Shown here piece by piece: positions 1,414 through 5,014 of a DNA stretch of 64,000 bases. The notes under the pieces are model-generated. The model was not told the DNA's origin, did no database searches, and was given only the letters and a program-made list of their open reading frames with translations. Source of the DNA: Haladaptatus sp. ZSTT2 (GTDB lineage Archaea > Halobacteriota > Halobacteria > Halobacteriales > Halococcaceae). The position numbers and the translations under genes are program-made. The stretch spans positions 992,001 through 1,056,000 of the forward strand of contig NZ_JBAMHQ010000001.1 in the NCBI RefSeq assembly GCF_037081775.1, given 5' to 3'. Each line of letters opens with the position of its first letter. Within the stretch, counting starts at the first letter, position 1.

Positions 1414-2175
1414 CTAGAGTCCCGTCGGTTCACCGATGAACGCTGTCTCCAGTCCCCACTGTTCGGTGAGGCTCTGGAGCGCACGCACCCCGAACGTCTC
1501 GGTCGCGTAGTGGCCAGCAAGCACGACGTGGATGCCCGCTTCCTTCGACTCGTGGTAGGCAGGCTGTTTCCCCTCGCCCGTGATGAGCGCGTCTACGCCC
1601 ACCGCTTCTGCTTCCGGGAGCCAGTCGGTTCCGCTCCCGGTGATGATGCCGATATGCTCGATTTCGTCGGGACCGTGGTCGAGTATCTGCACGCCCTGCC
1701 CGCCATTGTCGAGGCCAACGAGTGCTTCGCGGAGGTCAGTCACGGAAAGCGGGTCGGGAGCCGACCCACGAAGCCCGATGTATTCTGCAGCCTCCGCACC
1801 GAATCGCTCGCGGTCTTCGAGCGCAAGCAAGTCTGCGATACCGGCGGCGTTGCCGAGTTCTTCGTGCCCGTCAAGGGGGAGGTGTGAGGCGTAAAGGGCG
1901 ATGTCGTTCTCCAAGAGCAGGCGAATGCGCTCGTAAGTCGCGCCGGTCACGCGCTCGATACCGCCCCACGAGAGGCCGTGGTGGACGACGAACACGTCCG
2001 CCCCTTCGTCGGCCGCAGCTTCGATGGTCGAGACGGCGGCGTCCACGCCGAAGGCGACGGTTGAGACGTCCTTCTCGTCGGGGCCGACCTGCAATCCGTT
2101 CGCGCTCACGTCGAACGCGTAGTCTGCGGTGCGAAGGCGCTCATCGTAGCGCGAGACGAGGTCAGTGAGTTTCAT
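1414..2175 (-). CDS. Nif3-like dinuclear metal centre protein
   Basis: 253-residue member of the Nif3/YqfO/YbgI family, cytoplasmic proteins with a two-metal centre; some are annotated as GTP cyclohydrolase I type 2, but the physiological reaction is unsettled. Visible metal-site motifs are VVHHGLSWG (His65, His66), SHLPLDGH (His98, Asp102, His104) and the C-terminal LAGHYATETFGV segment. Length is normal for the short single-domain form. The ATG at 2175 lies about 27 bases from the AT-rich element at 2198-2205, so the mRNA is probably leaderless. It sits between dys and the eIF5A pair, but a role in hypusination is not shown. Confidence 0.9.
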   Translation of the reverse strand: MKLTDLVSRYDERLRTADYAFDVSANGLQVGPDEKDVSTVAFGVDAAVSTIEAAADEGADVFVVHHGLSWGGIERVTGATYERIRLLLENDIALYASHLPLDGHEELGNAAGIADLLALEDRERFGAEAAEYIGLRGSAPDPLSVTDLREALVGLDNGGQGVQILDHGPDEIEHIGIITGSGTDWLPEAEAVGVDALITGEGKQPAYHESKEAGIHVVLAGHYATETFGVRALQSLTEQWGLETAFIGEPTGL

Positions 2176-2197
2176 GGATTCAAATTAGCCACCAACG

Positions 2198-2205
2198 TTA
2201 AGAAA
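2198..2205. promoter_or_regulatory. Shared TATA-like box for two divergent transcripts
   Basis: TTAAGAAA (CGTTAAGAAA in context) lies about 27 bases from the Nif3-family ATG reading left and about 25-29 bases from the start of the first RNA hairpin (2227) reading right. It is the only good TATA candidate in the divergent gap, so one AT core may serve both directions. Based on position only. Confidence 0.4.
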
Positions 2206-2223
2206 TGCGGCGATGACAAAGCG

Positions 2224-2397
2224 ACTACCCGCCTTCGCGGGTCGGACAACGGAGTTGATTCCCAATGGGAAAATTCCGCAAAGCCGCATTCGTTTGGCGT
2301 CGATTACCTCGACGAACAAAGAATCGGATTGTCCGAACAGCACGGGGACTCGCACGCCGGGTGACCCCCGGGTAATAGCCGGCCCCGTTCCCGTTTT
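2224..2397 (+). ncRNA. Candidate structured non-coding RNA
   Basis: A stretch of about 171-174 bases folds almost completely by perfect short stems. They are a hairpin ACCCGC (2227-2232)/GCGGGT (2237-2242) and a closing stem CGGACAA (2243-2249)/TTGTCCG (2329-2335). Inside that stem are two arms: CGGA-TTCCC/GGGAA-TCCG (2250-2278) and CCG-ATTC...GAAT-CGG (2284-2327) capped by CGTCGA/TCGACG (2298-2303/2309-2314). A final stem ACGGGG (2342-2347)/CCCCGT (2383-2388) contains CCGGG/CCCGG. A T5 run at 2393-2397 fits an archaeal terminator, and a TATA-like box lies at 2198-2205. No tRNA, 5S, 7S or RNase P signature was recognised. The 129-codon reading frame across it does not look like a protein. Confidence 0.5.
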
Positions 2398-2413
2398 TAG
2401 GTTGAAAAGTAGA

Positions 2414-2474
2414 GTGCTAAGCCCTCTCCCTCAAGGAGCGAACGAAGTGAGCGAGTACGGAGGGGATACAGCAC
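2414..2474 (+). repeat. Left-end imperfect hairpin of the TnpB element
   Basis: GTGCT (2414-2418) pairs with AGCAC (2470-2474), and CCCTC (2422-2426) pairs with GAGGG (2460-2464), giving a long interrupted stem. Subterminal hairpins like this are the recognition structures of IS200/IS605 elements. Confidence 0.5.
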
Positions 2475-2543
2475 CCGCACGAGTTGCAAACATCCTAATC
2501 CATACCATAAATACACTCTGTTTCGTATATTTTGACAAGTCGT

Positions 2544-3824
2544 ATGGAGTACAGTCCACACTTCCGCTTGTTGCCCACCGAGAAGCAACGCGAAGACCGT
2601 GACTGGACTCGAAACACCGTACGACAAGTCTACAATCACGGCCTCTACCGATTCAATCAAATCCCCGAATCCGAGGGAACCGTGAAACAGAGAGTCCGAC
2701 AACTCAGAAATGAGCTACCCGAACTCAAAACGTGGTGGACAGACCTGCAAGACGTGTACTCGAAGGTCTTGCAAACCCACATCGAGCGCATCGCTCGAAA
2801 CATCACCAATCTCGGGAAACTCAAAGCGAAAGGCTACAACGTCGGCTCGTTGAACTGGAAGAAACCACGAGAGTTCCGCAGTTTCACGTACAACCAATCA
2901 GGCTTCAAACTCGACCACAAGAGTGGCCCGAACGGACGTGGGTTGCTGTACCTCTCGAAAATCGGCTGGATTCCAATCCGCCTCCACCGCGACATCCTCG
3001 AAGACGCCGAAATCGCGGAAGTCACGGTAAAGAAAGAACCCACTGGCGCATGGTACGCCTCGTTCTGCATCGACGTAGAAGAACCCGTGAAACCACCAGT
3101 CGAATCACTCTCAGTGGACGACTGTGTGGGTATCGACCTCGGAGTTTTCAACTACATCCACGACTCAAACGGTGTTGTCGTTGACCGTCTTGACCTGTCC
3201 GACGACCGAGACCGACTCGAACGCGAGCAACGAGCGTCGTCTCGCAAAACATACGGGTCGAAAAACTGGGATAAGCAACGTCGGCGAGTGGCGAAAGTCC
3301 ACGCTCGGATGAACGAGATGAAGTGGGACTTCAAGAACAAACTCGCACACTACTACACGACGCACTACAAGGCTGTGTTCCTCGAAGACTTGAACGTTAA
3401 AGGGATGCTCGAAGGGGCGCAGAACGCCCGCAACAAGGCCGAAGTCGGGTGGCGTGACCTCATCACTATTTTCAAGCACCACGGTCGGAAGAACGGGTGC
3501 TACGTGGTCACAGTCAAACCAGAGAACACGACCTTAGATTGTGCGTCATGTGGAACATCGGTGTACAAGCCGTTGTGGGTTCGTGGGCATTCGTGTCCGT
3601 CGTGTGGGTTTGAAACGGATAGGGATTGGAATGCGTCTCTCAACGTCCTCAGTCGAGGACTCAAGAAACTAGGAGTGGTTCACTCCGAAGACACGCCTGT
3701 GGAGACTGCAACCGCTATGTCCACCGACGGTGGCGATTCCTCGTCCATCGTTGTGGATGCAAGTCGCGTCACAGAAGCAGGAAGCCCCGTCCTCAAGGAA
3801 GCAACGCGAAGCGTTACTGAGTAG
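2544..3824 (+). CDS. tnpB: RNA-guided endonuclease TnpB
   Basis: 426-residue TnpB-family protein, in which a right-end-derived RNA guides a RuvC nuclease. The N-terminal helix-turn-helix/wedge part begins MEYSPHFRLLP. RuvC-I is VGIDLG (Asp198), RuvC-II is FLEDLN (Glu281), and RuvC-III is DRDWNASLN (Asp361). A four-cysteine zinc ribbon is CASC (333, 336) and CPSC (351, 354). All catalytic residues are present, so it is probably active. I use the ATG at 2544 rather than the TTG at 2532. TATA-like ATAAATAC (about 2506-2513) and TATATTTT (2526-2533) lie upstream. The 3' end of the gene overlaps the presumed guide-RNA scaffold. Confidence 0.93.
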   Translation: MEYSPHFRLLPTEKQREDRDWTRNTVRQVYNHGLYRFNQIPESEGTVKQRVRQLRNELPELKTWWTDLQDVYSKVLQTHIERIARNITNLGKLKAKGYNVGSLNWKKPREFRSFTYNQSGFKLDHKSGPNGRGLLYLSKIGWIPIRLHRDILEDAEIAEVTVKKEPTGAWYASFCIDVEEPVKPPVESLSVDDCVGIDLGVFNYIHDSNGVVVDRLDLSDDRDRLEREQRASSRKTYGSKNWDKQRRRVAKVHARMNEMKWDFKNKLAHYYTTHYKAVFLEDLNVKGMLEGAQNARNKAEVGWRDLITIFKHHGRKNGCYVVTVKPENTTLDCASCGTSVYKPLWVRGHSCPSCGFETDRDWNASLNVLSRGLKKLGVVHSEDTPVETATAMSTDGGDSSSIVVDASRVTEAGSPVLKEATRSVTE

Positions 3825-3839
3825 GGCGGGGTAGTTCAC
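3803..3839 (+). ncRNA. Right end and presumed reRNA (omega RNA) 3' scaffold
   Basis: AACGC (3803-3807) GAA GCGTT (3811-3815) is a perfect hairpin inside the tnpB 3' end, followed by GGGCGGGGTAGTTCAC up to the element end. In characterised TnpB systems the guide RNA spans this right end and takes its guide from the flanking DNA. Here the guide would start at 3840, inside the agmatinase 3' coding end. The 5' limit of the RNA cannot be seen. Confidence 0.5.
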
Positions 3840-4636
3840 GCTGAATCGGCGTGTGAGAAGACGAATTCTCTGCACAGTTTCGCCCCGAGCGTCGCCGTCT
3901 GCCCGTCGTCGCGGTCGTTCACCTCAACCACGTCGAAGCCGACGGCATGTGGGGCGACCTCTCTAACAACATCACGCATCTCACGCGGTGTGAGGCCGTA
4001 CGGTTCCATCGTCCCCGTCCCCGGGGCGAAGCCGGGGTCTGCGGCGTCGATGTCCACGCTCAGGTAAACCGCACCGTCGCCCTCGTACGTCCACTCGGCC
4101 ACGTCTTCGGGGGGAATTACGGTCACGTCGCCGTCTGCGGCGCGTTCCCACTCGGCTTTGTTGCCCGTTCGCGCGCCGAGGATGATGGCCTCGTCTGTGA
4201 CTTCGAGGGCGTGGCGGGTGACGGTCGCGTGGCTGAGTGGGTTTCCAGCATATTCCTCGCGGAGGTCGAGATGGGCGTCGAGACAGACGAACGTGTCGGG
4301 GGCGGTTGCTCGCACGCCCGCCACGGTCACCGTGTGCTCGCCGCCAAGGAGGATGGGAAGCGCCTCGTCACGCTCGATATCGGTGACCATCCCCTGTAAG
4401 AAGTTGAGGTAGTCAACCGCGTCGTCCCACGCGTGGAGGTCGCCCTCGTCTGCAACCTGCAAGTCAGTAAAATGCGCGTCCGTCCGGTGGTCGTAGTCGT
4501 CAAAGTTCTCCGCGTACTGCCGGATGCGTCCGGGGCCGAATCGGGCCCCCGGCTGGAACGAAGTAGAAATGTCAAGCGGCGCGCCGAGAATGACGTACGA
4601 AGCGTCGGTGCGAGAAGCCAGCGCGCCCGGGAACAT
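3836..4636 (-). CDS. speB: Agmatinase-like ureohydrolase (eIF5A hypusination)
   Basis: 266-residue ureohydrolase of the arginase/agmatinase superfamily, with the full set of two-manganese ligands: GGEHT (His101), DAHLD (Asp120, His122, Asp124) and SVDIDAAD (Asp195, Asp197). In Haloferax volcanii a gene of this type next to eIF5A is reported to finish deoxyhypusine formation from an agmatine intermediate; I infer the same role here. The ATG abuts the eIF5A stop (TAA immediately followed by ATG), so the two are co-transcribed. The stop codon (3836-3838) and the third base of the last sense codon lie inside the TnpB element right end, yet the C-terminus looks unaltered. Confidence 0.93.
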   Translation of the reverse strand: MFPGALASRTDASYVILGAPLDISTSFQPGARFGPGRIRQYAENFDDYDHRTDAHFTDLQVADEGDLHAWDDAVDYLNFLQGMVTDIERDEALPILLGGEHTVTVAGVRATAPDTFVCLDAHLDLREEYAGNPLSHATVTRHALEVTDEAIILGARTGNKAEWERAADGDVTVIPPEDVAEWTYEGDGAVYLSVDIDAADPGFAPGTGTMEPYGLTPREMRDVVREVAPHAVGFDVVEVNDRDDGQTATLGAKLCREFVFSHADSA

Positions 4637-5014
4637 TTAGATAATTTTGCGCTGGTCGTCCATCTCGAGGTATTCGATTTCGTCTTCCGGCGTCAGCGTC
4701 TTGTCGCCGGGAACCTTGATGGAGAAGGTTTCGTAGGTATCGAGGTCCATGACCTGAGCGACGTCGGAGCTTTCGACGCTCACGACCTGTCCCTGTTTTC
4801 GCTCGATAATTGGAATCCAGACTTTTGCGTCGACTGGCTGGGAGAAGCTACGCTTTTTGCTGTCGAAGACGCCCTTCCCCTCGACACGGGCCTTTGCACT
4901 GCCGTGCTTGCCGGGCTTTGCCGTGCTGTAGGAAGTGATGAGACACGGAACGTTGTTGATCATTACGTAGCTACCTTCCTGGAGGTCGCGGACCTCGCCT
5001 TGTTGCTTCGCCAT
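4637..5014 (-). CDS. eif5A: Translation initiation factor 5A (aIF5A)
   Basis: 125-residue archaeal eIF5A, which relieves ribosome stalling. The N-terminal SH3-like domain carries the modification loop KPGKHGSAK, with Lys36 as the hypusine site, followed by a C-terminal OB-fold (about residues 68-125). Length is normal. First gene of a two-gene unit with the agmatinase-like enzyme. The ATG at 5014 gives the usual MAKQQ start. Confidence 0.97.

What the first reader, a model, noticed from the sequence alone, without database searches (positions are those of the whole stretch)
2401..3839. TnpB element inserted exactly at the agmatinase stop codon without changing the protein
Seen: the element right end (GTAGTTCAC, to 3839) supplies the agmatinase TGA stop and the wobble base of its last codon. 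Removing 2401-3839 rejoins flanks to give the same Ser-Ala end plus a TAA stop. A neutral landing at a stop codon may explain survival next to a core gene pair and lets both the element and eIF5A modification persist.
Basis: partly seen in the sequence, partly recalled or inferred. Interest (0 to 1): 0.6.

Follow-up and report, generated by a model that had tools for sequence, protein, structure and literature searches.

The report
Jumping gene carrying its own stop
A small archaeal jumping gene sits exactly on the stop codon of an agmatinase-like gene and its own end supplies a replacement stop in the right frame; the same exchange recurs at many genes in other haloarchaea, because the sequence where it inserts and the sequence of its own end both read as stop codons on the opposite strand.

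Summary
Element 2401-3839 is a TnpB-only IS200/IS605 (IS1341-type) insertion in a haloarchaeon. Its right end TCAC (3836-3839) gives agmatinase its TGA stop and last wobble base. Joining the flanks gives Asp-Ser-Ala-TAA. Two congeners have empty sites with agmatinase ending at the same place; the closer one (97% identical) keeps TAA in the same column. Boundaries are independently fixed by a target/guide code: the TTAN target base is complementary to the left-end guide base in 82 of 88 related insertions.

It is not peculiar to this locus. Target TTAN reads NTAA on the other strand and the right end TCAC reads GTGA, in the same register. Any insertion whose TTAN is the antisense of a TAA stop therefore swaps TAA for TGA. 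In haloarchaea 21 of 88 complete insertions do this (3.6 expected from matched target sites). Of 32 genes running into a right end, 29 are in the one frame giving an immediate stop; a held-out set gave 6 of 6. Genes affected include aRF1, TatC and Cdc6.

Protein preservation is shown. Why stop codons are enriched beyond purging of harmful insertions is open; TnpB-guided retention is possible but untested.

The parts
2397..2400 (+). Host target tetranucleotide TTAG; on the minus strand CTAA, i.e. the original wobble base and TAA stop of agmatinase
2401..3839 (+). TnpB-only IS200/IS605 (IS1341-type) element, 1439 bp
   Evidence: boundaries from related copies, target/guide code and congener empty site
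2419..2422 (+). Left guide AAGC, last base complementary to the target base G
   Evidence: covariation
2423..2465 (+). Left subterminal hairpin (CCCTCTCC ... GGAGGGG)
   Evidence: not better than shuffles: z 0.42
2544..3824 (+). tnpB, 426 aa, intact, RuvC motifs and zinc finger present
   Evidence: NF040570 guided_TnpB 225.6 bits vs cut-off 100; Pfam OrfB_IS605 and TNB; alignment to a solved TnpB-like chain
3781..3839 (+). Right end: guide-like GAAG, hairpin GCCCCGTCC...GGGCGGGGT, cleavage site TCAC; also the 3' end of the predicted omega RNA scaffold
   Evidence: 3700-3839 folds at -54.3 kcal/mol, z -2.64
3836..3839 (-). Element-supplied stop TGA (3836-3838) and wobble base G (3839) of agmatinase
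3840..3859 (+). Host sequence that would be the TnpB guide: antisense of the last agmatinase codons
   Evidence: inferred from its position next to the right end; not tested
3836..4636 (-). Agmatinase-like gene
   Evidence: PF00491, TIGR01230
4637..5014 (-). aIF5A gene directly upstream (TAA-ATG junction)
1414..2175 (-). NIF3-like gene downstream of the insertion
   Evidence: PF01784
99..1115 (-). Deoxyhypusine synthase gene
   Evidence: PF01916

Best explanation
The element is a TnpB-only member of the IS200/IS605 family. A TnpA acting in trans (inferred; this genome has none now) inserted it 3' of a TTAG target. That TTAG was the antisense of the agmatinase's C-TAA (last wobble base plus stop). 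The family cuts the target after TTAN and the element after TCAN. On the opposite strand both read NTRA, so the target's TAA is replaced in the same frame by the element's TGA. The protein is unchanged except that the last wobble base becomes G (here GCC to GCG, both Ala). Insertions of this kind are therefore tolerated at the ends of indispensable genes, and such landings are a recurrent and enriched class in haloarchaea. Shown: boundaries, empty site, frame rule, enrichment. Inferred: that tolerance (purging of insertions inside genes) is the main reason such copies survive.
For: Congener empty sites with agmatinase ending at the same place. Target/guide complementarity 82 of 88, shuffled maximum 49. 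Site survey of 88 complete insertions: antisense TAA stop 21 (3.6 expected), inside gene 10 (24.3), sense stop in target 4 (0.7), intergenic 53 (59.4), against 5-mer-matched sites in 462 kb of host DNA; the excess holds over four gene-calling settings. Right-end phase test: 29, 1 and 2 of 32 genes in phases 2, 0 and 1, background 61, 70 and 71; held-out loci 6 of 6. Independent empty sites: a CBS-domain gene in G052 against G083, filled CTG-TGA versus empty CTC-TAA followed by the predicted downstream sequence; a 431-bp derivative in G001 against GGTC-TAA in G000 and G002. Ten of ten scanned stop-site genes carry a Pfam domain. IS608 has the same register: CL TTAC, CR TCAA (PMC5934647); group A IStrons use TTTAT or ATTAT (also TTGAT) targets and end in TCAG (PMC4227781).
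Against: If selection guarded the last residue, synonymous changes should be over-represented; they are 13 of 21, about what gene ends give (C-ending TAA genes 19 of 39). Purging alone does not explain why stop sites beat intergenic sites (21 observed, 4.9 expected among 78 sites outside gene interiors). Observed intergenic insertions do not avoid gene starts (48% within 100 nt, background 32%), so promoter avoidance does not explain it. No strain of the window's own species without the element was available.
Confidence: 0.87

Rival explanations
1. TnpB-guided retention drives the enrichment. At an antisense stop the guide RNA reads into the conserved end of the coding sequence, so TnpB can cut empty alleles of relatives and copy the element in without harming the gene.
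For: TnpB is intact and scores as an RNA-guided nuclease. The genome has no TnpA (0 matches in G000) yet keeps the element. Stop sites exceed intergenic sites.
Against: Sense-stop sites, whose guide lies downstream of the gene, are also in excess (4 against 0.7, two of them sharing one left flank). Elements under 1 kb, too short for a full tnpB, show 2 of 9 at antisense stops, no fewer than the rest (small numbers). The window guide may fold on itself (CACGCUG...CGGCGUG).
Confidence: 0.25
2. TnpA itself prefers gene ends, for example because they are more often single-stranded.
For: Antisense and sense stop sites are enriched by a similar factor (21 against 3.6; 4 against 0.7). Intergenic copies lie nearer to gene ends than background (within 30 nt 11% against 5%).
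Against: Small counts for sense sites; no transposition data.
Confidence: 0.2
3. A one-off coincidence at this locus.
For: A random TTAN site has a few per cent chance of being an antisense stop (81 of 2108 background sites).
Against: Recurrence in 21 of 88 sites, 29 of 32 abutting genes and 6 of 6 held-out.
Confidence: 0.03
4. The element is kept because its antisense guide RNA regulates agmatinase (a domesticated regulator).
For: The predicted guide is antisense to the last agmatinase codons.
Against: RuvC motifs are intact, unlike nuclease-dead TldR repressors (recalled). Both congeners lack the element at this place.
Confidence: 0.04

Closest known systems
IS608 (IS200/IS605 family, Helicobacter pylori)
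   Same: Insertion 3' of a TTA-type tetranucleotide, guide tetranucleotides 5' of end hairpins; TTAC/TCAA obey the same stop-for-stop register (PMC5934647, passages).
   Different: IS608 carries TnpA; here TnpB only, target TTAG, right end TCAC, haloarchaeal. No stop-codon landing class appeared in the passages read.
Haloarchaeal IS605-type elements and PATEs (Haloquadratum, PMC3119063)
   Same: Solo tnpB elements without target duplication, and short derivatives with related palindromic ends (passages and one section).
   Different: The passages found for 'stop codon' and 'target site' do not describe insertion at stop codons.
Borrelia IS605B stem loops at lipoprotein genes (PMC2775950)
   Same: An IS605 end overlaps the 3' end of a coding region (passages).
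   Different: A left-end fragment overlapping the last 8 nt of the gene; no frame rule or target-site explanation in the passages read.
Group A IStrons (PMC4227781)
   Same: Targets TTTAT/ATTAT and 3' end TCAG fit the same register (passages).
   Different: They are harmless through self-splicing, not through a supplied stop codon; one of their targets, TTGAT, does not fit.

Membership tests
IS200/IS605 family, IS1341-type (solo TnpB) | TnpB with OrfB_IS605 and zinc-finger nuclease domains | tested here: met
   PF01385 58.9 bits, PF07282 57.1 bits; NF040570 225.6 bits
IS200/IS605 family, IS1341-type (solo TnpB) | No TnpA in the element | tested here: met
   no Y1_Tnp match anywhere in genome G000; tnpB is the only large gene-like ORF in 2401-3839
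IS200/IS605 family | Insertion 3' of a short target, guide complementary to target, no target duplication | tested here: met
IS200/IS605 family | Subterminal hairpins at both ends | tested here: inconclusive
   right end strong (3700-3839, z -2.64); left end hairpin predicted but not better than shuffles (z 0.42)
Active TnpB RNA-guided nuclease | RuvC D-E-D residues | tested here: met
   DLG, EDLN and DRDWN align with the corresponding motifs of chain 9yyg; that these form the catalytic triad is recalled
Active TnpB RNA-guided nuclease | omega RNA expression and TAM-dependent cleavage | not testable with these tools
   needs RNA-seq and a cleavage assay
TldR nuclease-dead TnpB-like repressor | Loss of RuvC catalytic residues | tested here: not met
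   motifs present; family definition recalled

The most novel reading that the evidence does not exclude
Stop codons are a preferred, self-maintaining niche for TTAN/TCAN-type TnpB elements. The element swaps in its own stop so that even indispensable genes (release factor aRF1, TatC, Cdc6, the agmatinase-like gene) tolerate it. At the same time its guide RNA is read from the conserved end of the coding sequence, so TnpB can keep re-invading empty alleles. This would be a homing strategy aimed at gene ends, built into the end sequences of the transposon.
Probability: 0.25. Interest if true: 0.75.

Novelty: new variant of a known kind. Interest (0 to 1): 0.52.

Why it matters
It gives a simple structural reason why a very abundant group of transposons can sit on the last codon of indispensable genes: the sequence it needs for insertion and the sequence of its own end are both stop codons in the same frame on the other strand. 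Published ends of IS608 and of some group A IStrons fit the same register, so the rule may extend to bacteria. It predicts which genes can carry such elements, and it links TnpB guide choice to conserved gene ends, which can be tested. It also warns annotators that a stop codon and last wobble base can belong to a transposon.

Tried and rejected
Alternative left boundary (TTTA|G): rejected, because it shortens the join by one base relative to the congener empty site and breaks the target/guide complementarity. Gene disruption or truncation of agmatinase: rejected, the tail length is the usual one. Promoter avoidance as the reason for the excess at stops: not supported. Selection on the last residue: not supported, 13 of 21 synonymous. 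Using the insertion flanks and the window as background (expectation 4.6) was replaced by 462 kb of mostly separate host DNA; both give a clear excess. The choice matters: in the 64-kb window alone the scan gave 25 antisense stops and 100 intergenic sites, so the excess over intergenic sites depends on the background, while the phase test does not. Rfam gave only one chance-level match in 2000-4000 and nothing in four related loci. The first regular expression for agmatinase tails covered 30 of 80 loci and was replaced by direct translation.

Rows dropped: the list was itself cut short. I carried 126 of its right-end places forward and fetched 120; places at contig ends and places in genomes already fetched or judged duplicates were left out by hand. 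Of 140 candidates (120, 19 from the first batch of 20 regions, and the window) 51 gave no usable left end (44 low score, 7 no acceptable TTAN/guide pair) and one was a duplicate, leaving 88. L224 and L225 share a left flank. L181 counts as phase 2 but as inside a gene on the other strand.

Full report
What is there. The window lies in a haloarchaeal genome (G000, 3.23 Mb, four contigs). Genes on the minus strand run aIF5A (4637-5014), agmatinase-like (3836-4636), [element], NIF3-like (1414-2175), deoxyhypusine synthase (99-1115). Between agmatinase and NIF3 sits a 1439-bp element, 2401-3839, carrying only tnpB on the plus strand. TnpB is intact (426 aa), scores as an RNA-guided TnpB (NF040570, 225.6 bits, cut-off 100) and keeps the RuvC motifs and zinc finger when aligned to a solved TnpB-like chain. 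The genome has no Y1 transposase match: 0 in G000, 3 in G001, 1 (with an internal stop) in G002. So the element was moved by a TnpA that is no longer there, or by one acting in trans (inferred).

The last codon of agmatinase is GCG and the stop TGA; that G and the TGA are the complement of the element's terminal TCAC (3836-3839). Removing 2401-3839 restores GCC-TAA. In congener G002 (agmatinase 97% identical) the same place reads ...GATTC GAC GTAA GAACGGGAACG, which aligns base for base with the join ...GATTC AGC CTAA AAACGGGAACG; G001 (90%) ends HAAQS-TAG. Against G002 no bases were lost or duplicated. In 79 of 80 further relatives (one lacked the anchor motif), the C-terminal tail has median 5 residues, as here.

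Boundaries by an independent rule. In IS608 the target tetranucleotide (TTAC) is recognised by base pairing with a guide tetranucleotide (AAAG) 5' of the left hairpin, and the right cleavage site is TCAA (PMC5934647, passages). I searched 391 genomes of the class with a right-end pattern (224 of 391 had at least one match), fetched 120 of the listed places plus 20 first-batch regions, and could define both ends for 88 of 140 candidates. Targets are TTAG, TTAC, TTAA or TTAT. The guide base is complementary to the variable target base in 82 of 88; 20,000 shuffles never exceeded 49 (85 of 88 if a matching candidate is preferred). The window copy fits: TTAG and AAGC. This places the left boundary at 2401.

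The stop-for-stop rule. TTAN on one strand is NTAA on the other; TCAN is NTGA. The element is cut after TCAN and the target after TTAN, so at an antisense TAA stop the host codon NN|N-TAA becomes NN|G-TGA with no frame change. For the window element, entry with two host bases in hand stops after one codon; with one base after 8 codons; with none after 56. The protection is therefore specific to the frame in which TTA is the antisense of a stop.

It is common. Sites were classified with a simple codon-usage gene finder on the joined flanks, and the same classifier was run on every TTAN site in 462 kb of host DNA (20 regions of 20 kb from 20 genomes, and the window). Of 88 insertions, 21 sit on an antisense TAA stop (3.6 expected with matched 5-mers), 10 inside genes (24.3), 4 on a sense stop (0.7), 53 elsewhere (59.4); 50,000 simulations did not reach 21. 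Four gene-calling settings give 12 to 21 observed against 2.2 to 4.3 expected. A test independent of the left end asks in which frame a gene runs into the right end: of 135 distinct right flanks 32 have such a gene, in phases 29, 1 and 2 (immediate stop, other, other), while background TTAN sites give 61, 70 and 71. I wrote down the prediction and tested 50 loci from 15 genomes not sampled in the first round: 6 of 6 in the stop frame. The held-out rate per flank (6 of 50) was lower than in the first set (29 of 135).

Independent empty sites. In G052 the gene at L200 (CBS-domain protein) ends CTG-TGA with the element; sister species G083 ends CTC-TAA-AACGCACTTTTTGCTGTG, the ending predicted by removing the element. 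A 431-bp derivative in G001 (L216) predicts GGT-C-TAA at its insertion point; G000 and G002 both end GTC-TAA there. For L070 the orthologues end at the same residue but with TGA. Ten of ten scanned stop-site genes (of 21) carry Pfam domains, among them an eRF1-type release factor (L136), TatC (L201), Cdc6 lid/AAA (L173) and a PLP enzyme (L132).

What is not settled. The last residue changes in 8 of 21 cases, so selection on it is not visible. Purging of gene-interior insertions explains their deficit but not the excess of stops over intergenic sites (21 against 4.9 among 78). That excess depends on the background used (one search shows a gene-dense region with relatively more stop sites); the phase test does not have this weakness. 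TnpB-guided retention would predict it, since at an antisense stop the guide lies in conserved coding sequence, but sense stops look enriched too, and elements under 1 kb show 2 of 9. I put this at one in four.

The host gene. In Haloferax volcanii the agmatinase-like HVO_2299 clusters with aIF5A and DHS and could not be deleted without a second copy, even with putrescine; the authors favour a role in aIF5A modification (PMC5178350, abstract and passages). Whether expression is unaffected is unknown.

Literature. Searches for TnpB or IS605/IS608/IS1341 with stop-codon and target terms (listings only) and passages of PMC3119063, PMC2775950, PMC7290912 and PMC4227781 did not show this rule. The nearest is an IS605 end overlapping the 3' end of a Borrelia lipoprotein gene (PMC2775950). 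TnpB acting as a gene drive for IS elements on plasmids is described in PMC11870625 (abstract read). The library is open-access only, so the absence is not proof.

Noticed in passing
window 2216-2395 (minus strand), L410, L411, L412, L413: Conserved non-coding region between agmatinase and NIF3-like genes: 94% and 91% identical in two congeners and a diverged copy, also between these genes, in two genomes of another family (5 of 146 genomes in all). A consensus fold of 5 sequences has 11 of 48 pairs with changes on both sides, but no net covariation gain; no Rfam match. Possible structured RNA or 3' UTR element.
   Followed up: partly
survey sites: The target base TTAN and the left guide base AA[GT]N covary in four subfamilies (TTAG with C, TTAC with G, TTAA with T, TTAT with A) of haloarchaeal IS605-type elements, a natural guide-target code.
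   Followed up: yes
L136 (G129:C24): A related element supplies the stop codon of the archaeal release factor gene aRF1 itself.
   Followed up: partly
window 3837-3853: The predicted guide of the window element can pair with itself and the last right-end bases (CACGCUG/CGGCGUG), which might hinder guide function.
   Followed up: no
G159:C1:729108 and 729717 (L224, L225): Two right ends 609 bp apart share one left end, suggesting a tandem or nested insertion; G304 has right-end matches with the same spacing.
   Followed up: no
L075, L076, L116, L156, L170, L194, L213, L216: Short derivatives (153-563 bp) with the same ends but too short for a full tnpB, PATE-like, follow the same target rule.
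   Followed up: partly
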